Source: a virus. From it: a DNA stretch of 20,163 nt. The notes beneath the pieces are model-generated. The model was not told where the DNA came from and made no database searches. It saw nothing but the letters and a program-made list of their open reading frames with translations. Position numbers and translations under genes: made by a program. Numbering within the stretch: the stretch's first letter is position 1; each line of letters begins with the position of its first letter. The stretch is from positions 1 to 20,163 of IMG/VR virus record IMGVR_UViG_3300025325_000480. The stretch is one strand, 5' to 3'. Of the stretch, positions 486 through 12,154 are shown piece by piece.

Positions 486-760
486 GCGATGACCTTATGC
501 ACGATCACGACCCCGCCCGCGATGGCAAGCGCGTGAAGCGCGTACTCACTCACGTTCGCATAGGGCACGAGCAGCGCCGCGCCCCACGCCAGCCAGAATG
601 ACAGGCACAATACGCAGCCCAGCCCGCGCCCCAGCCACGATTTTTGACCCGCCCAATCCCGCAATGTCGAGAAGATGTCAAAAGGCCCGTCTTCAATCGC
701 GATCATGCGCGCGACGCGGTAGGCGGCCAATACTCCGAGGAAGAATTGCAACGCGGTCAC
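482..760 (-). CDS. Small membrane protein, DUF1360-like
   Basis: This 92-residue protein starts at GTG 758-760, which overlaps the TGA of the preceding gene (GTGA). Its own TGA overlaps the GTG of the connector gene. An ATG at 964 would extend the frame, but that extension is arginine-rich and lies antiparallel-free within the upstream gene, so I reject it. The sequence has an N-terminal hydrophobic helix, the pattern YRVARMI, then DIFSTLRDW, a CVLCLSFWLAWG segment with a CxxC pair, and a second hydrophobic helix near the C-terminus. This order of elements matches the DUF1360 family of short phage and spore proteins, whose function is unknown. It lies between structural genes, so it may be a virion or membrane-assembly factor. 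The family call is from memory of the pattern. Confidence 0.7.
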   Translation of the reverse strand: MTALQFFLGVLAAYRVARMIAIEDGPFDIFSTLRDWAGQKSWLGRGLGCVLCLSFWLAWGAALLVPYANVSEYALHALAIAGGVVIVHKVIA

Positions 761-1299
761 GCGGGCGTCTCCGGGAGTTCGCGCAGTTCGGTTCCCTTGA
801 CTATTTTTGTCGGCCCCTTGCGCGCGCGCTTGACGACGCCCTCCGCCGTCTGGATGGCCTGAACGGGCGCAGCGGGTTCCAGTGCGGGCGCGGGTACAGA
901 TGCGATCACAGATGCGGGCGCGGGCATCGGCTCGTCGCCGGAGAGGACGCCCACCACGCGCCAATGCCCGGTCGCCGCGAGCATCGCCACGTCGTCCGGG
1001 TGGGCGTTGATGTAGCGGTGCATGGTAGTATTGCCGCCCTGGTAGGCGCGCCCGGCCTTCCCGCGATATGTCACGGCTCCCGTGCGCGTCCCGGTGAATT
1101 CCAGGCGCACGGGCTGGATAGTCGGCGCGGGCGCTCCCGCCGTCGCCCCGCTCGTCTGCGACATGGACGGGTTGAGCGTCGTTCCGCGCGCGGTAATCCT
1201 GAGGCTGAGTCCGGTTTTGGCGTTGGGGGTTTCATCCCACGCTTTTTTTGCGGCCATGATCGCATCTCCGTTCCCCCCACAGCACGACTTGGTTGCCAT
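757..1299 (-). CDS. Nested/alternative product: small CCGG-start structural-type protein
   Basis: The last 180 codons of the glycosyltransferase gene can be translated alone from ATG 1297-1299. CAGGAG lies eight bases upstream, a better ribosome binding site than the one before the full-length start. The predicted protein opens MATKSCCGG, has an MAAKKAWDET helix, then a beta-type segment (VRLEFTG, AVTYRG, KAGRAYQG) and an Ala/Pro-rich, basic tail. It resembles short accessory proteins found between capsid and connector genes in many phages. No stop codon separates it from the glycosyltransferase, so both a fusion and a separate protein may be made. Its function is unknown. The internal start is inference from the Shine-Dalgarno and the abrupt change of domain type. 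Confidence 0.55.
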   Translation of the reverse strand: MATKSCCGGNGDAIMAAKKAWDETPNAKTGLSLRITARGTTLNPSMSQTSGATAGAPAPTIQPVRLEFTGTRTGAVTYRGKAGRAYQGGNTTMHRYINAHPDDVAMLAATGHWRVVGVLSGDEPMPAPASVIASVPAPALEPAAPVQAIQTAEGVVKRARKGPTKIVKGTELRELPETPA

Positions 1300-3627
1300 T
1301 GGGTCTACTCCTGAAAAACGTTCCTTGAGTTTCATTAACAGGGATTCGCGTTCGCGCATCGCGTGCGCCGTGCGCGTCCCGGTCGTGCGCCGCACGACGA
1401 TGAGCGGCTCGGCCACGCGCTGGCCCTGGATGCCTGCCAACGCGCAGCGCGCGAAGAAATCCCAGTCCTCCCAGACGATCAGGTCTTCCGCGAACTTGAC
1501 GCGCCGCGCATCCTCGGTCGCCATGAGCACGGCGGTGAGATGCTTTCCGCCCAAGTCGGAAAAGTCCAACCATGCTCCGGCGTGATAGTCCGGGCTTTTC
1601 TGTTCGCGCGTCCCCTGCGCATCCTGCTCGTACCAGTCCGGGTACACGTAGCGTCCACCCGCGTTGGCATAGGCGCGGCATAGATGCGCCAGCGCATCCC
1701 GATGCAGGTAATCGTCCGCGTCCAGAAAGAAGGCGAGCGGGGCGTGGGCGTGGGCGAGTCCTACGTTGCGCGCCTTACCTGCGCCCAGCTCCGGGCCATC
1801 CGGCGCGTCATTGGCGATGTAGGTCGCGAACGGATAAGGCTTTAGAACGTGGTCTAATTCGATTCCGGCATCGTTGACCACAATCACTTCCCAATCCCGC
1901 ATCGTCTGACCCAGCAGCGAATCGAGCGCGAGCGGGAGAGTGGTTGCGTGTCCCGGCCCGACCGGGATAATCACGCTCACGCGCGGGTCGGAATAGGAAC
2001 GCACGGGCGGGGCGCTCGCCGAGGGCGCGGCCAATGGGTATTCCCGGTCACGCATCCACGGCGAGAAATCATCCGTGGGGACGTAGGCGCGCGTCTTGTG
2101 CGCGCCGTCGCCGTGGTCGCGGTAGATCATCCAGGGTGAGTCCGTCACCTGCGCCGCGGTGAATCCAACTGACAGACCGCGCGTGTAGAATTCGGCGTCC
2201 TCGCCCGGCGCATAACGCTGCCGATAACCGCCGCACCGCTCCCATAGCGAGCGCCGGAACATGGCCGCCGTGGGGATGGTCGTATTCGGCGGCACGACCG
2301 GCGAGGCCTGCCACTCCCAATCGAAGCCGCCCGTCCAGACGTTCCCGGTTGTCTGCCGTCCGGGGCGCATCCACGCCATGCCGGTGTAGGCCACGCCTAA
2401 TCCCCGGTCGCGCATCATCGCCTGGCGGCAGACTTCCACGTAACGCGGCGCGAGCATATCATCTGCATCCAGGCAGACCAGATAAGGCGCTTTGGCTTCC
2501 GCCACGCCATTGTTGCGCGCCGCCGCCACGCCCTGATTGCTCTGGCGCAAAATCTTTATCCTATTCTTGTAGCGCGCCAGGATGCTTTCCGATTCGTCCG
2601 TCGAGCCGTCGTCCACCACGATGACTTCATCCGCTTTGTAGGATTGCGCCAGAACGCTCTCGATACACTCTGCCAGATAACGAGCATAATTATGATTGGT
2701 AATGACGATTGCGACGCCGTGCGTCTCGGCCCGCGCTTCCCCCGCTATTCGCGCGTATAATTCAGCGTATTGGCGCATTGCCTTTTCCCAGGTAAACTCG
2801 CGCGCGCGAATGCGGCAATTCGTCGAAAGCGCCTCACGGTGACGGCGGATGTAGTCCAGTCCGGTCATTAGCCCGTCCCCGTCTCCGGGCTGTACGAGAT
2901 ACCCGTCCAACTCATGCCGCACGATGTCCCGCGTTCCGCCCCAGGCGTAGCCCAGCACCGGCACGCCGCAGGCCATCGCTTCGAGCGTCCCGATCCCGAA
3001 CGTCTCTTTGGTCGTCGCCAGATAGACCGCCGCGCCCCGGATCGTCTCGCGCATCCGCTCCGCCGATTGAACGCCCGTGATGGTCATTGTCTCCGGCGCG
3101 GCTTTCCCTTTTGGCGCGAAGGTCGAGACGACGCGAACCTTGCGCCGCGCAAGTTCCCAGGCGGGAGACGGGTCGCAGACATCATCGCTGCCTCTGTTTT
3201 TATTCCAGAGCACATAGCCCGCGCTCAATCCCGGCTCCCATTCATCCGGCTCGATTCCGTGCCCGATGATGACCGGCGACACGCGCATGTCGCGGCGGAA
3301 AGGCAAGGCGACCCAATCGCTCGGCACGGTGATAGCGCGCGCGCGCCGGGCCGCCGCCGCGATGCGCGTGTTGGCGTCTGTATGCCATTGACTGTATTCG
3401 CCGCTGCCTACGTCTCCCAGCCAGTACAGCCCGTGGCAATGGAGCACGTCCAGGCGCGGGATCGCATTCTGCTGCGTGTGGCTGGCGATCACGTTCGCCT
3501 GCTCCGGCGTTCCGACGAGCGTCACGCCCAGGCGCGGGAGATATTTGTATTGCGCGTGGACAACGCGCCCGATACCGTGCGCGGCGGGATGCGTTTCAGG
3601 CGAGGGCCAGAGATAAACTTTAGTCAT
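757..3627 (-). CDS. Triple glycosyltransferase (GT4-GT2-GT2) fused to a C-terminal phage structural-type domain
   Basis: This 956-residue protein is read from ATG 3627, five bases past the stop of the methyltransferase gene; the 19 codons upstream overlap that gene and look unused. Residues 1-300 are a GT-B fold: an EX7E pair (E208, E216) lies in the TKETFGIGTLEAMACG segment. Residues about 303-511 are a GT-A family 2 domain with VVDDGS and a DADD metal-binding motif (D387, D389). Residues about 547-760 are a second GT2 domain with VIIPV, VVNDAG and DADD (D636, D638). From residue 777 the protein changes to a cysteine-start domain (ATKSCCGG) with proline/alanine-rich linkers, which has its own Shine-Dalgarno. 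It probably assembles a short glycan in the cytoplasm from nucleotide sugars, some made by the neighbouring genes. The acceptor is not known; capsid or tail protein is one possibility. Confidence 0.85.
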   Translation of the reverse strand: MTKVYLWPSPETHPAAHGIGRVVHAQYKYLPRLGVTLVGTPEQANVIASHTQQNAIPRLDVLHCHGLYWLGDVGSGEYSQWHTDANTRIAAAARRARAITVPSDWVALPFRRDMRVSPVIIGHGIEPDEWEPGLSAGYVLWNKNRGSDDVCDPSPAWELARRKVRVVSTFAPKGKAAPETMTITGVQSAERMRETIRGAAVYLATTKETFGIGTLEAMACGVPVLGYAWGGTRDIVRHELDGYLVQPGDGDGLMTGLDYIRRHREALSTNCRIRAREFTWEKAMRQYAELYARIAGEARAETHGVAIVITNHNYARYLAECIESVLAQSYKADEVIVVDDGSTDESESILARYKNRIKILRQSNQGVAAARNNGVAEAKAPYLVCLDADDMLAPRYVEVCRQAMMRDRGLGVAYTGMAWMRPGRQTTGNVWTGGFDWEWQASPVVPPNTTIPTAAMFRRSLWERCGGYRQRYAPGEDAEFYTRGLSVGFTAAQVTDSPWMIYRDHGDGAHKTRAYVPTDDFSPWMRDREYPLAAPSASAPPVRSYSDPRVSVIIPVGPGHATTLPLALDSLLGQTMRDWEVIVVNDAGIELDHVLKPYPFATYIANDAPDGPELGAGKARNVGLAHAHAPLAFFLDADDYLHRDALAHLCRAYANAGGRYVYPDWYEQDAQGTREQKSPDYHAGAWLDFSDLGGKHLTAVLMATEDARRVKFAEDLIVWEDWDFFARCALAGIQGQRVAEPLIVVRRTTGTRTAHAMRERESLLMKLKERFSGVDPMATKSCCGGNGDAIMAAKKAWDETPNAKTGLSLRITARGTTLNPSMSQTSGATAGAPAPTIQPVRLEFTGTRTGAVTYRGKAGRAYQGGNTTMHRYINAHPDDVAMLAATGHWRVVGVLSGDEPMPAPASVIASVPAPALEPAAPVQAIQTAEGVVKRARKGPTKIVKGTELRELPETPA
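1308..1313 (-). promoter_or_regulatory. Internal Shine-Dalgarno inside the glycosyltransferase frame
   Basis: On the minus strand CAGGAG is followed by eight bases and ATG 1299. It sits exactly where the second GT2 domain ends and the cysteine-start structural-type domain begins, so it probably permits separate translation of the last 180 codons. Confidence 0.55.
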
Positions 3628-3631
3628 CGGC

Positions 3632-4390
3632 TCAACCCAGCCAATAGTAGTTTCCCCGGATGTGGGGAATGTCGCGCCGCTCAAGTTTCAATTCCTGCGC
3701 TAGATTTCGCAGTGGGCCTCGGGTATCCTCCCCGTGCCATAGTCCATCGAGCGCGGAGGCGAGGACGTGACACGGGCGGATGAGTGACAGATACTCCGCC
3801 TGAATTTCGACGTTCATTTCCGAGAGCGACCATAGCGCCACGAGCAAATCGCATTCCAGCGGGGCGGGGGAGACGTGGATTTCCGCGCGCAGGTCAAAGG
3901 CGTCCAGATAGAAACGCTGCAAGAGCGCGAATTCCGGCAGGTCGAAAATCACATAGCGCCCAGTGAAGCCCGCACGCCGCGCGATTTTGCACAGCGCCCC
4001 ATATCCGCCGCCAATCTCTGCAATCGTTTCGAGTTCGGCAACCTTGCTCCCCGTCGCCTGCTCCCACTGCATCAGGTGATAAGCCTGATGTACCAGGTTC
4101 CCGGAAGTCCACGGCTCGCCCGGCAATCGCGTGGGATGGCCGAAGTCGTCCTCGCGGATGGCGTTTTCCCATCGTCCCCAACCGTCTGCCTTCAATTCCA
4201 CGAGTTCGCCTAATGTATAAGGCGCATGACCGACGAACATTGTTTGTACAATAGTCGGCCAGGTCAGGAACATTCCCGGATCGTCGTCGCGGACGTGCTC
4301 CCGGATGTCCCGGCGCTTGTCCGACCAGAAATCTCCCGACTCGATCTCTGGCAGCAAATCGAATTCGCGGCGCAGGTCGTCAGTTTTCAT
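3632..4390 (-). CDS. Putative sugar O-methyltransferase (SAM-dependent)
   Basis: This 252-residue protein starts at ATG 4390, inside the last codons of the aminotransferase-fold gene (11-base overlap). The longer upstream frame is an arginine-rich shadow of that gene and is rejected. The SAM-binding motif AEIGGGYGALCKIA is at residues 124-137 (EIGGGYG at 125-131), followed by a strand and VIFDLPEF (DLPE about 150-153), then YLDAF. EIGGGYG with DLPE is the signature I associate with the 'putative sugar O-methyltransferase' (NanM-like) family in polysaccharide clusters. The N-terminal 100 residues are a helical domain with several tryptophans. Its place between the ColD-like gene and the glycosyltransferase suggests that it methylates a hydroxyl of the sugar made or transferred here. 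The exact substrate is unknown. Confidence 0.75.
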   Translation of the reverse strand: MKTDDLRREFDLLPEIESGDFWSDKRRDIREHVRDDDPGMFLTWPTIVQTMFVGHAPYTLGELVELKADGWGRWENAIREDDFGHPTRLPGEPWTSGNLVHQAYHLMQWEQATGSKVAELETIAEIGGGYGALCKIARRAGFTGRYVIFDLPEFALLQRFYLDAFDLRAEIHVSPAPLECDLLVALWSLSEMNVEIQAEYLSLIRPCHVLASALDGLWHGEDTRGPLRNLAQELKLERRDIPHIRGNYYWLG

Positions 4391-5570
4391 AGACGAGTTC
4401 CGGTGAAGCGATGGGCCTTTTCTCAAAGTAAGCGCCAATCGTTTCGACAATGTGCGCCAGATCGTCTGCGCTAAGCGCCTGGTGGCAGCCCACGTAGAAT
4501 CCGCTCCGGTTGATCCAGGCCGCGACCGGGTAATCTGATTCCCGGAACATCCCGCGATAGCAGGGCTGGTTCGTGAGCGGCAGCATCTCGCGCGTCTCGA
4601 TCCCGTTCTCTTCCAGCCACGCGCAGAGTTCGCCTTTTGATTCATTCCGCAATACGAGCGGGTACATCATCCAGGAATGTTCGCCGCCATCACGCACGCG
4701 CGGGAGTTGCAATACGTCCGCATAGGGCGCGAGGCCGCGCGTGAGCGTTTCGGCGTTCTGTTGGCGCTGGCGTAGGATGTCCGGCAGGTCGTCCAGCTGC
4801 CCCAGGCCGAGCGCGGCTTCGAGTTCGGTAATGCGGAAGGAATGCCCCACGCGCTCGAAGCGGAAGCGCCGCGCGATGATCTCCCGCGTCGGCTGCTCGT
4901 CGTCGTCAATCGAAATGTAAATCCCATCGCGCCCGTGGTTGACCAGCGAACGCATGACACGCGCATATTCAGCGTCGTGCGTGACAGCCAGGCCGCCCAC
5001 GCCGGTCGTGAGCAGGTGCGCGGCGTAGGTCGAGAAGCAACCGATGTCTCCCCACGCGCCTACACTCAGACCGTGGTGCTTGACGCCCATGCACTCACAT
5101 GAATCTTCGATGACCTTGAGCCGGTGTTCGTGAGCGAATACGGCAACCTTGTCCATTTCGCACGGCTGTCCGAAAACGTGAACGGGGAGTATCGCGCGCG
5201 TGCGCTCAGTCAGCGCAGTTTTCAGCCAGCGCGGATCGAGCGTATAGGTTTCCGGGTCAACGTCCACCAGCACGGGCTTGAGACCGTTATGCAGCACGAC
5301 GTTGACCGTCGCCACGAAGGTCAGCGCGGGAACGATGACTTCATCGCCGTCGCGCCAATGGTGGATTTCCTTGAGCGTTTGCAGCGCCACCTGTAGGCTG
5401 GACGTGCCGGAGTTGGAGAGCACGGCGAAATAGGCCTGATGCATCTTTGCGAAGCGCCGCTCGAATTCCTGAGATATCGGGCCGTAAGTGATGCGGCCCG
5501 TGTCCAGCACTTCGCCCACGAGCGCGCGCATTTTTTCGGTGACGTTGAATGATCCCACGCCAATGGTCAT
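4380..5570 (-). CDS. DegT/DnrJ/EryC1-fold PLP enzyme with active-site His, ColD-like sugar 3-dehydratase
   Basis: This 396-residue protein has the DegT/DnrJ/EryC1/StrS layout: NSGTSSLQVAL phosphate-binding start, DEVIVPALTFVAT, VDVDPETYTLDP, and the PLP ring-nitrogen aspartate D156 in IEDSCECMG. Aminotransferases of the family have a lysine that binds PLP, in a K-x-I-T-T-G-E-G-G context. Here the segment reads FSTYAAHLLTTGVGG, so H185 takes the lysine position. The same Lys-to-His exchange is known in ColD (GDP-4-keto-6-deoxymannose 3-dehydratase) and in the E1 CDP-sugar dehydratase. EDxCExMG also resembles ColD. I see no clear iron-sulfur cysteine cluster as in E1. The likely role is C3 deoxygenation of a nucleotide sugar in the cytoplasm. 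The ATG overlaps the TGA of the upstream gene (ATGA-type), so the two genes are coupled. Confidence 0.85.
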   Translation of the reverse strand: MTIGVGSFNVTEKMRALVGEVLDTGRITYGPISQEFERRFAKMHQAYFAVLSNSGTSSLQVALQTLKEIHHWRDGDEVIVPALTFVATVNVVLHNGLKPVLVDVDPETYTLDPRWLKTALTERTRAILPVHVFGQPCEMDKVAVFAHEHRLKVIEDSCECMGVKHHGLSVGAWGDIGCFSTYAAHLLTTGVGGLAVTHDAEYARVMRSLVNHGRDGIYISIDDDEQPTREIIARRFRFERVGHSFRITELEAALGLGQLDDLPDILRQRQQNAETLTRGLAPYADVLQLPRVRDGGEHSWMMYPLVLRNESKGELCAWLEENGIETREMLPLTNQPCYRGMFRESDYPVAAWINRSGFYVGCHQALSADDLAHIVETIGAYFEKRPIASPELVYEN

Positions 5571-6280
5571 AATGGTTCCAGATAGTCCAATGCTTCAAGT
5601 TCCTGCCAGTCTTCAGCCCGGAGCGCAGCGGGCGGAACCTGATAGCCCCCGTCGAGTGTGACCTTGCCGTGTTGTATGGCGATGAGATAGCGCGTCGGCC
5701 ACTGGCGCGTTCCCAACACGCGCGCCCCGGCCTCATTCATACGCGCCGTACCATTGATCTCCGTCTGCCAGGGCGTCTCACCCGGAATCAGGTAGCGCAG
5801 CAGTTCGGAGCGCCGCCAAATCCCAGCCTGAAAACTGAGCAGGTAGGGCACGGGCAGGTTGTTGGTAATCAGGTCGAGCCATCCCAGCGCGCCGACTTCG
5901 CGCACATTGCCCGCATAGAGCCGATCACTGGACAGATCAACCCGCGCCACGTCCCGATGCTGCGTCATGTACTGCGCGACGAGTTCCACGGCTTCGGTAT
6001 CCACGTTCCTGAGTAACCAGAAATCTTCCATCCACCACAAGATGAGTTCGTCTGGCATATCCTTGAGCGCCTGGATAATTCCGTCGCTCCACCGTTCCAC
6101 CGGATAATCCGCGAATGCACCGATGCTGTACCAGTTGTGCGGCGCGGGCAGCGATAATTCCGGGCGCGTGTAGCCCGCGATAACGAGCGGCGGATGGGCG
6201 GGCCAGTATTTCTCCATCAGGTGTAGGCATGGCCTGAGCGCCCACAGGTGTTTGTCAGACGTGCTCAGGAAGATTCGCAC
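5567..6280 (-). CDS. Putative glycosyltransferase-like protein (GT-A type, MEDFW motif)
   Basis: I choose GTG 6280 (237 residues), which overlaps the end of the epimerase gene by 26 bases. The protein then opens VRIFLSTSDKHLWALRPC, a typical first strand and helix. A GGAG lies about ten bases upstream. An ATG at 6415 exists, but its extra 45 residues are an out-of-frame reading of the epimerase. Visible motifs are LILWWMEDFWLL (an acidic pair in a DxD-like position) and LLSFQAGIWRRSELL followed by PWQTEINGTAR. I recall this SxQxxIW...PWxxE pair from uncharacterised glycosyltransferase-like proteins in polysaccharide loci. Together with its neighbours it probably transfers or modifies a sugar. 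There is no signal peptide or membrane segment. The family is recognised only by pattern, so donor and acceptor are unknown. Confidence 0.6.
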   Translation of the reverse strand: MRIFLSTSDKHLWALRPCLHLMEKYWPAHPPLVIAGYTRPELSLPAPHNWYSIGAFADYPVERWSDGIIQALKDMPDELILWWMEDFWLLRNVDTEAVELVAQYMTQHRDVARVDLSSDRLYAGNVREVGALGWLDLITNNLPVPYLLSFQAGIWRRSELLRYLIPGETPWQTEINGTARMNEAGARVLGTRQWPTRYLIAIQHGKVTLDGGYQVPPAALRAEDWQELEALDYLEPL

Positions 6281-7217
6281 GCGACAGATACTCCGCGACC
6301 GTCTCGAATAGACCATCGGCCAATTGCGTCTTGAAGCGCCAGCCCAAATCAGCGCGTGCACGGCTTGCATCTGAGAATCGTTCCCGGTCTCCGCCGTTCC
6401 CTCCGGTGAATTCAACCGGCTTGTGTCCGGTGCGCGTCATGCGCTGGATTTCGGCCACGAGTTCCCGGATGGGGATGCACGTCTCGCCATCCGTGCCCAA
6501 ATTGTAGACCGCGCCGGGCGTGCCGTGTTCTAGCACCGCCATCATTCCCGCCATCCCATCCTCCACATACAGGAATTCGCGCCGTTCTTCCCCCGTTCCA
6601 TGTACCCGGATCACGTCATCGGTCAGGCATTTTTTTATCAGCGCCGGGATAACGTGCGCTCGCTCGTCATAGTAATCATGCGGCCCATATAGATTGCTTG
6701 GCCTGACGATGACGGCGTGGGGCAGACCTGACCATTCCACCGCGCGCTCACCCATGCGCTTGGCCCAGGCATAGCCCGAGTTGGAGTCGTCCGGTTCGCC
6801 CGCGTGCCCGCTTTCTTCTCGCGCGGGTGAATTGTAGCCATCGGCGTAGACGCATACGGACGAGATTTGCAGAAAGCGCGGTACGCCCGCTGTCTGCGCC
6901 GCGCGTACCGGGACGGTCTGTAAGAGCATATTGCGCTCGAACATTTCCAGCGCGTGCGCCTGGTTGTAGAGCACCCCCGCGACGTAGGCGGCCAAGTTGA
7001 AAACTGCGTCCGCGCCCTGAAAGACGCGCGCGCAGGCTAACATATCTCCCGCATCGCGCGCCTCGTATTCGATGCCCTCGACGAGGTTCTGTCCACGGCT
7101 GAAGTCGTCCATGACGACGGTGAACGCGCCCTCGTCGCGCAGGCGGCGCGTCAGGTGAACGCCCACGAAGCCCGCGCCGCCGGTGACGACTACTCGTTTT
7201 CCAGACCAAAAGGACAT
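6255..7217 (-). CDS. NAD(P)-dependent nucleotide-sugar epimerase/reductase, GDP-L-fucose synthase/ColC-like
   Basis: This 320-residue extended SDR protein starts at ATG 7217; the open frame upstream lies over the capsid gene and is rejected. The Rossmann motif TGGAGFVG is at residues 12-19 and the catalytic YAWAK (Y149, K153) with ISS (S119-S120) is in place. C122, two residues before the tyrosine of SSVCVY, aligns with the catalytic cysteine of GDP-fucose synthase. H188 in AHVIPALIKK aligns with its catalytic histidine, and NLYGPHD is also typical. These residues serve 3,5-epimerisation followed by NADPH reduction of a GDP-4-keto-6-deoxyhexose. ColC, the colitose-forming enzyme, belongs to the same group and works after ColD, whose relative lies two genes downstream. 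No clear Shine-Dalgarno precedes the ATG. It is the first gene of the sugar cassette, 59 bases after the capsid gene. Confidence 0.85.
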   Translation of the reverse strand: MSFWSGKRVVVTGGAGFVGVHLTRRLRDEGAFTVVMDDFSRGQNLVEGIEYEARDAGDMLACARVFQGADAVFNLAAYVAGVLYNQAHALEMFERNMLLQTVPVRAAQTAGVPRFLQISSVCVYADGYNSPAREESGHAGEPDDSNSGYAWAKRMGERAVEWSGLPHAVIVRPSNLYGPHDYYDERAHVIPALIKKCLTDDVIRVHGTGEERREFLYVEDGMAGMMAVLEHGTPGAVYNLGTDGETCIPIRELVAEIQRMTRTGHKPVEFTGGNGGDRERFSDASRARADLGWRFKTQLADGLFETVAEYLSRANLPEHV

Positions 7218-7276: not shown

Positions 7277-9004
7277 TTACGCGGTGGGCGAGAAGTACGA
7301 AGGCCCGCGCCCGTCGCGATCCGTGCCGCCGCCGTCCACGAAGTAGGACGTATTCGACGGATCCCACGACCGCTGATGCTTGACCGGCGTGTACTTCACG
7401 CTGTCCAACCGCGCCGCGATCTGCGGCGTTTCCAGGATCACGCGCCACTCGGTCTTGGCGAGCATCTGCACGCAGAAGTTCGTCGGCGGCTTCTTGTGCC
7501 ACAGGAATCGCCCGGCGTTGCTGGTGAAGTACGAGTCACCCGGCGCGAAAATCTTCGCCATCTCCATCGCGCCCATCGGCCCATCCCAGTTGACGTATTC
7601 CAGGAACGTCACCGGGCGATTGCCCAGGACGCGCGTCGGAACGAAGTAGAGCGTGGCGCTGAACGACTCGCCCGCCAGCACCGTCTCGGCAATGCCATCG
7701 TCCAGGATGACCGGCACGCGCTGGCCGTCAATGAGAAGATATTGCCCGGTGCGGGTGAAGATGTCGCCGCGCATGTCATCGCGCATCCGGTTCTGTTCCA
7801 TCAGGTCAATGACGCCCCGGTTGTTCTCGCCCGCGACCGTGCAGCGATAGGAGACGTAAGCACATGGCCAGACTTCCGTGAGTTCGTAGAACATCGCCCA
7901 AGGGACGACGATCACCCATGAGGCGGGGTCGAGGCCCATATGGGACGAGTTGTATTTGAGATTCCTGAAAATGCCGGTAATCTCGCGCACGTACCAGTCG
8001 CCGTTCGTGTTGATCTCGCGGCTGTTCGCATCGCGCACGATGGAGTCGGCGGCGGGGCAGGCGGTCCCCGTCTCCGCATCGCGATAGCCGTCGTTGATGA
8101 GGATGTCCAGGCCATACGGCTCCTTGTAGCCGTTGTTGGCCGTGTTGTTCGTCGGCGACCCGTCGTAGAGCACGGTGGCGAAGTCGCGCCCCCAGGCAGT
8201 CGCAAACTCGAACAGCGCCTTTGCGATCTCGGAACGCACGGCGAGCGCGGGGCTGGCATTGGCCGGGGCCTGCGGCGTGAAGAAGTTCCCCGCCACCGGA
8301 TCGCCGATGAGCGACAAGTCATTGAAGTCGCTCCGGTTGATGAAGCGCCCGGCGCGGTCAATGTCGAAGACGCGCGTCATGCGCGAGAAGCGACCCCACA
8401 CGAAGGCGTGGGTGCAGAGCTTCATTACAATTTGTTACTCGTACTTTCATACGGGTGAAACATTTCTGCTTCACTCTGCAAGTTTTTTTTCTTGCAGTTC
8501 AGACTATACCTTTACCCCAGAGGGGTACTCCGTTTCTAGTCGTTGCACCTTCCTGATTTACACAGCAGGCTTGGCTCAGTCTTGGCATTTCAGCGTTGAC
8601 TGAATTTACGGAGTGTTTCAATCCCAATTGCTTGAGAAAGGGGCCACAGCTAACCCTGCCACAGGCGGATCGTCGCATACGCCTGACGGCTCGCCGCCGG
8701 TCGAGGCCGTGACGCCGGTCATGATCCCGTACAGCGGATTGTCGTAGATGCTCGTGCGCGACGGGAGCATGTCGAGCAGCCCCAGGCGCGGCATGACCAT
8801 CGCGTTAACCAGGTCGGGTTCGAGTCCGGGATACGAGAACAGTCCGGCCACGCCCCCCGGCTGCGGGCCGGTGACGCCGTGTCCGTAGACCGTGGTCGGC
8901 GTGGACGAGACGGCCTTCTGCCGTCCGCCGTTCTGTGCCAACTGCGCGGCCAAAAGCGCCGAGGCGAGTTTCTGATAGTCGATGTCTTGAGTTTGAGTGG
9001 TCAT
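7277..9004 (-). CDS. Major capsid protein gene, split by a group I intron (exons 9004-8653 and 8427-7277)
   Basis: Two exons, 352 and 1151 bases, join into 500 codons when the intron at 8652-8428 is removed. The junction codon is T|TA (L118), giving VCDDPPVAG-L-MKLCTHAFVWGR. This run is continuous in homologous phage capsids as I remember them (CDDPPxAGLMKLCTH). Without splicing, exon 1 reads into the intron and stops at 8618. Exon 2 alone would start at an internal methionine (8425) without a good ribosome binding site. The start is taken as the second of two adjacent ATGs (9004; the first is 9007), six bases after AAGGA. The protein should form the icosahedral shell. Its place after the HK97-type protease/scaffold gene supports an HK97-like fold, though no fold-specific motif can be read. 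The exon 2 product ends about 60 bases before the sugar cassette. Confidence 0.88.
8428..8652 (-). ncRNA. ORF-less group I intron in the major capsid gene
   Basis: The 225-nt element shows the group I core on the minus strand. P1: exon GGGU plus intron U pairs with GGCCC (8645-8641), with U8653 opposite G8644 as the U-G splice pair. P3: ACTCCGT (8614-8608) with ACGGAGT (8533-8527). A P4/P5-region stem pairs TCAGTC with GACTGA, and P6 pairs CCTG with CAGG. P7: GACTA (8541-8537) with TAGTC (8506-8502). P8: ACCCC/GGGGT (8526-8514). P9: CTGCAAG/CTTGCAG with an A8 loop (8497-8476). A last hairpin is TTTCA/TGAAA (8460-8445). The R-like element GTGCAACGACTAGAAACGG and S-like element AAAGGTATAGTCT are diagnostic. 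The intron ends in G8428 (omega-G) and its removal keeps the frame. It is AT-richer than its exons and has no room for an endonuclease gene. Confidence 0.93.
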
Positions 9005-9016
9005 CATGATTCCTTT

Positions 9017-9535: not shown

Positions 9536-10753
9536 GTCAACCTCCTTGACGAGTAACTGCGTAACCGTGTTGCTGGCTTTGCCTTTGGGGAGCAGACTGC
9601 GCTCCTTGCGCCGGATCGTGTTGAATATCCCGTCCTTGTCCGGCTCGATTTCGGGATGCTTGAATCCGATTGAGATTTCCAGGTTATCCACCTGCGCCTT
9701 GACCGACTCGGCCACGACGTCGTTGGCGAACGTGCCCGACTCGACGAGTATTTTTTCCTGCATGGCGTTGTAATCGCACTCGCCTAGCACTGCGCCGGGC
9801 GTATGCCACCACAGAAGCGGGCCATAATCTTTTTCCTTATCCGCGCGCGCCACGTCCGCCGCGAGCGCCTTGCGGCTGATAATTTCTTTGTCGCGGTCTT
9901 CGTAGGCCGACGATGAAAATGATACCCAGCGATATTTCCCCGCCGCGTCCTTGAAAACAGTCAGGCTCGAATCTCGTCCGGTATACGCTTTGTCGCATTC
10001 CGCGCCGAGCGAGACGGCGTTATTGTGGATGGTTTGCAGCATCTCATTATCTTTGGACGAGTGGCGGCGGCCTTCCTTCCACCGCTCGAATGCGCCCGTC
10101 AGAGTTTCCATGAGAGAATCCACTACGGATTTAGAGCGGGGGGCCTCGAGGGTTTCCGGCGCGGGGGGTGTCTCGATTTCCTTTTTATCTTCCTGTTCGG
10201 ATTTCTCCGCCCGCGGTTCTTCCCGCACTTCCTTGAGCAGCGGCCCCGGATCATTCAAGAGTGCCTGCAACTCGCGCGCCGCCTTCGCAATCGCCGCGCC
10301 TTTGTCGGCCACGTCCTCACTCACCAGGATATTGTCCGTCACGGACTGGAATATCCAGGCCGCCTGACCGATGGCCGCCGCCTTCTCTTGCGCGTCCATC
10401 GCCGCCAGCGCATCGGCCAGCGTCAGCGCGCCGCCGTAGGGTGGCGAGGGGGCGTAGGCCATCTCCGGTTCGCCCCAATGTTTCTCAGTCTCCGGCTCTT
10501 CGGCTTCTTCGGCCTCGGCCAACGCCTGCTGCGCTATCGCGGCCTTGCTCTGCAAGTCGCGCAGACGGCGGCGCTCGGCGGCTTTCTGTTTGGCGATCTT
10601 GGAATTTGAATTTGGCATCGCGCGTTTTTCCTTGTTCAGACTGCTACAGCAAATCGCTATGGCGCTTGACTTCTCGTGGCCCTGCGCCATTACTTTTTCA
10701 ATGCAGGCGTCCATGAGTTCTGTTTGAAATTCACTAACACATGAATACGGCAT
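9017..10753 (-). CDS. HK97-type prohead protease fused to scaffold domain
   Basis: This 578-residue protein has three parts. Residues 1-45 hold a short helical module (DACIEKVMAQGHEKSSAIAICCSSL) that I know from the N-termini of phage head proteins. Residues 46-240 are a charged, Ala/Glu-rich helical region. Residues about 250-405 are the protease: H317 in LLWWHTPG and S361 in NLEISIGFKHPE match the His and Ser of the HK97 prohead protease (U35) family. Residues 407-578 are a coiled-coil scaffold-like region. The protein should direct capsid assembly inside the prohead and then cleave the scaffold. Start is uncertain: ATG 10753 has little Shine-Dalgarno, while the ATG at residue 46 has AAGGA ten bases upstream. 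The gene lies directly before the capsid gene. The -35 element of the divergent HNH gene touches its first codon. Confidence 0.85.
   Translation of the reverse strand: MPYSCVSEFQTELMDACIEKVMAQGHEKSSAIAICCSSLNKEKRAMPNSNSKIAKQKAAERRRLRDLQSKAAIAQQALAEAEEAEEPETEKHWGEPEMAYAPSPPYGGALTLADALAAMDAQEKAAAIGQAAWIFQSVTDNILVSEDVADKGAAIAKAARELQALLNDPGPLLKEVREEPRAEKSEQEDKKEIETPPAPETLEAPRSKSVVDSLMETLTGAFERWKEGRRHSSKDNEMLQTIHNNAVSLGAECDKAYTGRDSSLTVFKDAAGKYRWVSFSSSAYEDRDKEIISRKALAADVARADKEKDYGPLLWWHTPGAVLGECDYNAMQEKILVESGTFANDVVAESVKAQVDNLEISIGFKHPEIEPDKDGIFNTIRRKERSLLPKGKASNTVTQLLVKEVDMEKDKQEALEKLLGKEQAQAVIEQADKRQKEADDAGLRSKESRRMSDMTEEEFGAALEKAVAPLAERLTKLESAGEGKSEKATAEQAEREKAVNDRLAGIETGLTAALAGVSELKGDLPRAFYRPSQEGKPVAVGADGKSVADERFKSAFPQADPLAPFLNALAPGLTQAGQ
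9541..9547 (-). promoter_or_regulatory. Internal Shine-Dalgarno for nested scaffold
   Basis: AAGGAGG on the minus strand, five bases before ATG 9535, lies inside the protease frame just past the protease domain. It is stronger than the site before the full-length gene, so the free scaffold could be made in excess. Confidence 0.65.
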
Positions 10754-10781: not shown

Positions 10782-10802
10782 TACTTACAAACGACATGCC
10801 AA
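10774..10802 (-). promoter_or_regulatory. Possible minus-strand promoter for protease/capsid genes
   Basis: TTGGCA (10802-10797), 17 bases, then TATATG (10779-10774) face the protease gene. The two hexamers match the sigma70 consensus at 5/6 and 4/6. It overlaps the divergent HNH promoter. A promoter is expected here because a terminator lies upstream. This is a weak call by eye. Confidence 0.35.
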
Positions 10803-11533
10803 AGCGAAAGTTCACGTCCAACAAAGAAATAATCTATAAATATGTTGGGGGAAGAAACCGACCAGGAAAGTTTGTTGCTTGCCCATCTTGTCTATCTAAG
10901 AGATGGGTAAGTTTGGATAATCTATCTCGGTCTCGTGATTGTCTGAATTGCAAAAGGAATTCTGTCACTTGTATATGTCCAACCTGTCAAAAAGTATTTA
11001 CGAAACCGATTAGCCGTAGGCAAAAATTCTGTTCGCGTGAATGCTCAGATATACCCATACGATTAGAGATGATTCATTGTAAACATTGCAACAAACATTT
11101 TCAGCCACAAGGTTCAAAGACTAAATACTGTTCCAGAACATGCTACTTAGATTCAAAACTAAACCGAATTCCCAAGACCTGCGAAACCTGCCACAAGGGA
11201 TTCTGGGTTATTCCCTCCAACGTCAAGCGAAGATTCTGTTCACTTGCATGTCGAAATCAAAAAGGACAAAACAACCCAAACTTCAGAAACGGATTACACA
11301 TCAATAGACCTTTTCCTTATCCCTATGGAGGGAAGTGGCCCATAATTCGTAAATGGATATTAGAGAGAGACAATCATCAATGCCAATATCCAAGATGCGG
11401 AAAGTCGGTCACACTCCAAGTCCATCACAAAATAAAGTTTTCAAAGTTCAAGAGTAAATCAGAAGCAAACTCACAAGAAAATCTGATTACTCTCTGCGGA
11501 CTTCATCACCGAGAATTAGAAAAGTCGGCCTAA
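10796..11533 (+). CDS. Free-standing HNH (homing-type) endonuclease with zinc-finger repeats
   Basis: This 245-residue protein is encoded opposite to all its neighbours, is far AT-richer than they are, and has its own promoter; these are signs of independent transfer. The C-terminal HNH domain (about 185-245) shows ILERDNHQC, C196/C201, the HH pair H210-H211 in LQVHHKIKF, N229 in SQENLITLC and H237-H238. Before it are three similar cysteine modules of about 35 residues, each C-x2-C followed by (F/Y)CS-x2/3-C: C61/C64 with C79/C83, C95/C98 with C112/C116, C129/C132 with C148/C152. A further pair-type ribbon (C29/C32, C49/C52) is at the N-terminus. Such modules probably bind the long recognition site of a homing enzyme. 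It may make double-strand breaks or nicks that spread itself or the nearby capsid intron. Its target is not known. Confidence 0.88.
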   Translation: MPKRKFTSNKEIIYKYVGGRNRPGKFVACPSCLSKRWVSLDNLSRSRDCLNCKRNSVTCICPTCQKVFTKPISRRQKFCSRECSDIPIRLEMIHCKHCNKHFQPQGSKTKYCSRTCYLDSKLNRIPKTCETCHKGFWVIPSNVKRRFCSLACRNQKGQNNPNFRNGLHINRPFPYPYGGKWPIIRKWILERDNHQCQYPRCGKSVTLQVHHKIKFSKFKSKSEANSQENLITLCGLHHRELEKSA

Positions 11534-11957: not shown

Positions 11958-12154
11958 TCCAGCAACTCCCCACAGCGCATACAGTTGCGTCGGCCATCTT
12001 CTCCCGGCTTGCCCGGTTTGTGGCCACCCGCCCGCGTCGCGCAGTTCAGGCGCGCGGCGGCCAGTCCAAAGACCAGGCGTGCGCGCAGCGTCCAGTAGAA
12101 CTTACGCGAGACGCTGCCGAAATACATCGAGACGAGGGCGCGCGGGCTAATCAT
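11954..12154 (-). CDS. 66-residue small protein with C-terminal cysteine pair
   Basis: ATG 12154 overlaps the TGA of the gp10-like gene (ATGA), and its TGA overlaps the next TTG. The N-terminal half is basic and aromatic (MYFGSVSRKFYWTLRARLVF, a helix). The C-terminal half has C38, a GGHKPGK turn with a histidine, and NCMRCGELLD (C-x2-C-G), which could form a zinc ribbon. I do not recognise a family. Because the next gene has the same C...H...C-x2-C scheme, the two may have related roles. Confidence 0.6.
   Translation of the reverse strand: MISPRALVSMYFGSVSRKFYWTLRARLVFGLAAARLNCATRAGGHKPGKPGEDGRRNCMRCGELLD

What the first reader, a model, noticed from the sequence alone, without database searches (positions are those of the whole stretch)
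8428..8652. Minimal ORF-less group I intron in a phage major capsid gene
The capsid frame breaks after VAGL and resumes at MKLCTH, and the 225 nt between show P1, P3, P7, P8 and P9 pairings plus R- and S-like core elements. Splicing at U8653 and G8428 restores the frame with a U-G pair in P1. Group I introns are known in phage genes, but this one is very short and sits in the most strongly expressed structural gene. The standard gene call would give two false genes.
Basis: partly seen in the sequence, partly recalled or inferred. Interest (0 to 1): 0.9.

Follow-up and report, generated by a model that had tools for sequence, protein, structure and literature searches.

The report
Self-splicing intron in phage capsid gene
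A virus of bacteria carries a tiny RNA that very likely cuts itself out of the messenger for its main shell protein, and a near-copy of that RNA sits at a different spot in the same gene of a related virus, which suggests that such RNAs can hop to new sites.

Summary
The finding is correct. Window 8652-8428 (minus strand, 225 nt) is a group I intron: Rfam RF00028 scores 60.8 bits against a cut-off of 50. Thirty-six related phage capsid genes read straight through the junction (GL^MKLC or equivalent), and a model of the family shows the HK97 capsid fold. Phage capsid-gene group I introns, and short ORF-less ones, are already known, so the intron itself is a new member of a known kind.

The surprise came from relatives. 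The capsid gene of a related phage (L004) is empty at this site but carries a 90%-identical ORF-less intron about 110 codons further on. Both introns follow GGGU, as the shared guide sequence GCCC requires. Gene-blind scans of IMG/VR found only one other close carrier, a virus whose unrelated capsid gene holds two more copies, again after GGGU. The two carriers of this capsid family are not sisters in the capsid tree, so the lineage has moved to new sites. Reverse splicing into abundant capsid mRNA is the tidiest explanation, but unproven; DNA-level movement helped by free-standing endonucleases remains possible. Splicing was not tested.

The parts
8653..9007 (-). Capsid gene exon 1 (codons 1-118 plus first base of codon 119); ends ...GCAGGGU
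   Evidence: Translation and alignment with 36 uninterrupted relatives
8428..8652 (-). Group I intron, 225 nt, no ORF of note; first base U8652, last base G8428
   Evidence: RF00028 60.8 bits; exon continuity; longest stop-free stretch 57 codons
7277..8427 (-). Capsid gene exon 2 (rest of codon 119 to codon 501 and stop)
8651..8656 (-). P1 5' strand: exon GGGU plus intron UA; splice after U8653, in a U.G pair
   Evidence: Pairs with 8646-8641 UGGCCC
8641..8646 (-). P1 3' strand / internal guide sequence (GCCC)
   Evidence: the same guide is found in the L004 intron
8623..8636 (-). P2 hairpin with GCAA tetraloop
   Evidence: U.G in window is U-A in L004
8608..8614 (-). P3 5' strand (pairs 8533-8527)
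   Evidence: C-G to A-U two-sided change in L198A
8575..8604 (-). P4-P5 domain (P4 8604-8598 with 8581-8575)
8552..8569 (-). P6a hairpin
   Evidence: two pairs with two-sided changes
8537..8541 (-). P7 5' strand (pairs 8506-8502; helix that should hold the guanosine site)
   Evidence: A-U to U-A in L198A/B
8514..8526 (-). P8 hairpin
8476..8497 (-). P9 hairpin
8440..8474 (-). Two 3' hairpins (labelled P9.1 and P9.2 here); the second has a GNRA loop (GAAA; GAGA in L004)
   Evidence: substitutions between the two introns mostly keep pairing
10796..11533 (+). Free-standing HNH endonuclease ORF, 2.1 kb from the intron on the opposite strand; possible but untested helper
   Evidence: phrog_1271 E 2.4e-25; PF01844; not in the record of the second carrier

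Best explanation
The insert is an ORF-less self-splicing group I intron in the major capsid gene of an uncultivated tailed phage. In the pre-mRNA, exon GGGU pairs with the intron guide GCCC to form P1. A guanosine bound in P7 attacks after U8653, and the freed exon 1 then attacks after G8428, joining GGG-U|UA to restore Leu119 and one 501-residue capsid protein. The anatomy and exon continuity are shown here; the chemistry is inferred from the family. The intron belongs to a small lineage found at four sites in capsid genes, always after GGGU. It has moved between sites, and reverse splicing into abundant capsid mRNA followed by recombination is the most economical route, at about 0.4 on its own. 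The confidence given is for the identification as a splicing group I intron.
For: RF00028 above its gathering score for window and L004 introns. Exact exon continuity in 36 relatives. HK97-fold capsid model. Helices with two-sided changes across four introns. L004 carries a 90%-identical intron at a different site and is empty at the window's site, while exons are 69% identical in DNA and 54% at third codon positions. The two carriers are not sisters (AU p 6e-5); intronless L023 is L004's sister. L198 has two more copies after GGGGU in an unrelated major capsid gene. Gene-blind pattern scans found no close copy outside capsid genes.
Against: No RNA data: splicing and reverse splicing are untested. 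The P1 target is only 4-5 bp and GGGU occurs 5 to 9 times in the two capsid genes, so the shared motif is required for splicing wherever the intron lands and does not by itself show how it moved. P10 reads as good in L004 and L198A but weak in the window and L198B. Four sites are few, and pattern scans miss diverged copies. Endonucleases exist in these phages.
Confidence: 0.95

Rival explanations
1. The intron is as described, but it spreads at DNA level: a free-standing homing endonuclease (HNH here; others in relatives) cuts intronless capsid genes and repair copies the intron in (collaborative homing), with off-target cutting giving new sites.
For: HNH ORF 2.1 kb away in the window. Two HNH matches in L004's record. 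GIY-YIG genes just downstream of capsid genes in L025/L026 and the L198 group. Introns with endonuclease-like genes in L198. Collaborative homing is described for other phages (PMC3984707, PMC10448857).
Against: The window HNH has no homologue in the L004 record, and no single endonuclease is shared by the carriers in the searches made. Homing copies an intron to the same site, while here the sites differ; ectopic cutting needs illegitimate repair.
Confidence: 0.3
2. Vertical descent: an ancestor had introns at both capsid sites, and each phage lost a different one.
For: Both carriers fall within one supported clade of four capsids.
Against: Needs several precise losses (L023 and L024 are empty at both sites); introns are 90% identical while third codon positions are 54% identical.
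Confidence: 0.12
3. The insert is a decayed or non-splicing remnant, and the capsid is inactive or made as two proteins.
For: No transcript data; both ORFs have start codons.
Against: All core helices are intact, compensatory changes point to selection on the RNA, exon frame and sequence are preserved at both junctions.
Confidence: 0.03

Closest known systems
Group I intron of the mycobacteriophage LittleE major capsid gene (PMC3706429)
   Same: Group I-like intron in a phage major capsid gene; U before the 5' splice site and G at the intron end; splicing shown there by RT-PCR and protein sequencing
   Different: 819 bp with an endonuclease ORF; different phage; a near-identical 5' segment occurs in a tail gene of BAKA rather than at a second site of the capsid gene
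BAKA/Optimus tail-gene intron (PMC3706429)
   Same: Short (265 bp) intron without an endonuclease gene, related to one at another site
   Different: In a minor tail gene
Short group I introns of Jug phages (PMC12363816)
   Same: About 206 nt on average; splicing of 37 of 76 predicted introns supported by metatranscriptome reads
   Different: Huge gut phages; terL, nrdD and polymerase genes are the examples in the passages read; no relation by sequence tested
Fungal rDNA group I introns spread by reverse splicing (PMC1299323, PMC3984707)
   Same: Related introns at different sites explained by pairing of the guide sequence with short targets
   Different: Those are in ribosomal RNA genes; here a protein gene of phages

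Membership tests
Group I intron (RF00028) | Covariance model match above the curated score | tested here: met
   60.8 bits, cut-off 50
Group I intron (RF00028) | P3-P8 and P4-P6 core with the P3/P7 pseudoknot | tested here: met
   P3 7/7, P4 7/7, P6a 4/4, P7 5/5, P8 5/5 pairs; covariation across four introns. P5 is only about 2 standard pairs
Group I intron (RF00028) | U at the exon 1 end in a U.G pair of P1; G as last intron base | tested here: met
   U8653.G in P1; G8428; the same in L004
Group I intron (RF00028) | Removal restores an uninterrupted host gene | tested here: met
   36 relatives continuous
Group I intron (RF00028) | Guanosine-initiated self-splicing | not testable with these tools
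   Needs RNA work
Group I subgroup (IA-IE) | Subgroup-specific peripheral helices | tested here: inconclusive
   Only 3 nt between P7 and P3, so no room for P7.1/P7.2 of subgroup IA (read from sequence); no subgroup models were run
Tailed-phage HK97-fold major capsid protein (host gene) | HK97 fold | tested here: met
   Model of relative L023: VIA Z 20.4, rmsd 3.5 over 310 residues, to 7f38_A; HK97 itself Z about 14; no Pfam or PHROG hit
Collaborative homing system | Nearby free-standing endonuclease cutting the intron insertion site | not testable with these tools
   HNH present 2.1 kb away; cutting site unknown

The most novel reading that the evidence does not exclude
A lineage of group I introns specialises in phage capsid genes, hopping to new GGGU sites by reverse splicing into the abundant capsid mRNA, with no endonuclease of its own in three of its four known copies.
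Probability: 0.3. Interest if true: 0.72.

Novelty: new member of a known kind. Interest (0 to 1): 0.5.

Why it matters
[quoted passage not shown] Here are 90%-identical, ORF-less introns at two sites of one phage gene, with matching empty sites and a common guide sequence, which makes a direct test simple. It also shows that a capsid gene can be missed or split by standard gene calling.

Tried and rejected
Prokaryote genome scans by intron pattern and by capsid profile found nothing. Phage and plasmid collections gave only weak partial intron matches and no capsid match. Three of the 16-mer hits (L192, L194, L196) are chance matches in coding sequence. RF00028 at gathering score misses the L198 introns, so its silence in relatives does not exclude diverged introns elsewhere in those genomes. 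Co-conversion of exons around the sites was looked for between window, L042 and L023 and not seen clearly. A tandem pair of cores in L128 was looked at but its host gene was not resolved. Intein and sequencing-error readings were dropped: the insert has stops in the host frame and a full ribozyme core.

Full report
Observation. The window is an IMG/VR virus record. On the minus strand a 129-codon ORF (9007-8618) and a 382-codon ORF (8425-7277) are parts of one gene. The 225 nt between U8653 and U8427 match Rfam RF00028 at 60.8 bits over the full model, cut-off 50. No other family reaches its threshold in the window.

Exon continuity. A capsid search found relatives. In 36 of them the gene is one uninterrupted ORF through the junction; in the closer ones the residues are GLMKLC or close variants. 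The joined window protein has 501 residues and 69-71% identity to L023, L024 and L042. Pfam and PHROGs do not recognise the family. An AlphaFold2 model of L023 with 31 relatives (mean pLDDT 73) matches HK97-fold capsids: Z 20.4 to cyanophage A-1(L), and Z about 14 to HK97 itself.

RNA anatomy. P1 is GGGUUA/UGGCCC with the splice after the U of a U.G pair. P2 has a GCAA loop. P3, P4, P6a, P7, P8, P9 and two 3' hairpins pair completely in the window. P5 is very short. On an alignment of four related introns, P3, P4, P6a, P7 and P8 keep 97.3% of cells paired, with 6 pairs changed on both sides; the shuffled means are 90.4% and 3.5 pairs. Slid controls give 24-48% of cells paired and at most 3 such pairs. 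This points to selection on the RNA structure, with the caution that only four sequences are compared.

The second site. L004/L042 (IMGVR_UViG_3300010391_000155) has an intron at L004 6344-6562, 219 nt, 90% identical to the window's over 220 columns, RF00028 58 bits. It lies between GGG-U and AU-CGU, restoring INTG-Y-RDAETG, which is continuous in its relatives. The window's site is empty there (GCAGGGU|UGAUG), and L004's site is empty in the window (GGC-U). Exon DNA is 69% identical, third codon positions 54%. In the capsid tree L042 is the sister of intronless L023, and holding the two carriers together is rejected (AU p 6e-5). The intron therefore most likely changed site and lineage at least once; the alternative of two ancestral introns with several precise losses is kept as a rival.

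More copies. Gene-blind scans of IMG/VR with core patterns returned L004 and one other virus in four records (L193, L195, L197, L198). Three further hits of one scan were chance matches in coding sequence. In L198, two introns about 80% identical to ours over the core follow GGGGU and start at 12073 and 13159; a third, less similar one follows CCCAGU and starts at 9772. Joining the exons gives a 509-residue protein. It is 24-27% identical to proteins annotated as major head or capsid protein in Alicyclobacillus phage MMB025 and Arthrobacter phage Sonali, and its gene follows a head maturation protease. It has no detectable similarity to the window's capsid. Of the two close copies in L198, one (872 nt) holds an endonuclease ORF and one (247 nt) does not. 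All four close copies of this lineage, in two unrelated capsid families, are in capsid genes after GGGU.

Mechanism. Splicing is inferred from family knowledge; the anatomy leaves little doubt. Movement is open. Reverse splicing explains new sites that share only the guide target, and the concentration in what is usually a highly expressed late mRNA. By reading the sequences, intron 5' bases can pair with exon 2 (P10) well in L004 (CGAU with AUCG, one G between) and L198A (CAGGU with ACCUG), but poorly in the window and L198B. The rival is DNA repair after cutting by a free-standing endonuclease. The window has an HNH gene at 10796-11533 (+), 40% GC against 60% for the window, absent from the L004 record, which has other HNH matches. 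GIY-YIG genes lie just downstream of capsid genes in L025/L026 and the L198 group. Neither route is tested.

Comparison. Capsid-gene group I introns are known in LittleE (with an endonuclease ORF), and that paper cites one in lactococcal phage Tuc2009; it also reports a related 265 bp intron without an endonuclease gene in a tail gene (PMC3706429). Short introns are common in Jug phages (PMC12363816). Spread by reverse splicing is argued for rDNA introns, with no direct experimental evidence according to a 2014 review (PMC3984707). No paper found in the searches made describes this lineage. The intron is a new member of a known kind; the pair of sites is what deserves follow-up.

Noticed in passing
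window 10796-11533 (+): Free-standing HNH ORF with several Cys-pair motifs, AT-rich against its surroundings and opposite to the capsid operon; nearly absent from relatives.
   Followed up: partly
L198 9772-13405: A major capsid gene with three group I introns, two holding endonuclease-like ORFs; RF00028 at gathering score misses them all.
   Followed up: partly
L217 about 1975-2922 and L215 3304-4167 (-): GIY-YIG endonuclease genes with repeat tails directly downstream of capsid genes in two unrelated phage groups, one without introns in its capsid gene.
   Followed up: no
L128 5524-5850, also L115 and L173: Two group I core matches 278 nt apart, outside an obvious continuous ORF.
   Followed up: no
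L215 4446-6002 (-): Long ORF made of SPSVSPS-like repeats near the three-intron capsid gene.
   Followed up: no
window 757-7140 (-): Just downstream of the capsid, ORFs that by eye look like glycosyltransferase, aminotransferase and sugar epimerase genes, perhaps for surface or DNA decoration; not tested.
   Followed up: no
L063/L117 (IMGVR_UViG_3300028549_001062): A 181 kb phage contig with at least three group I core matches.
   Followed up: no
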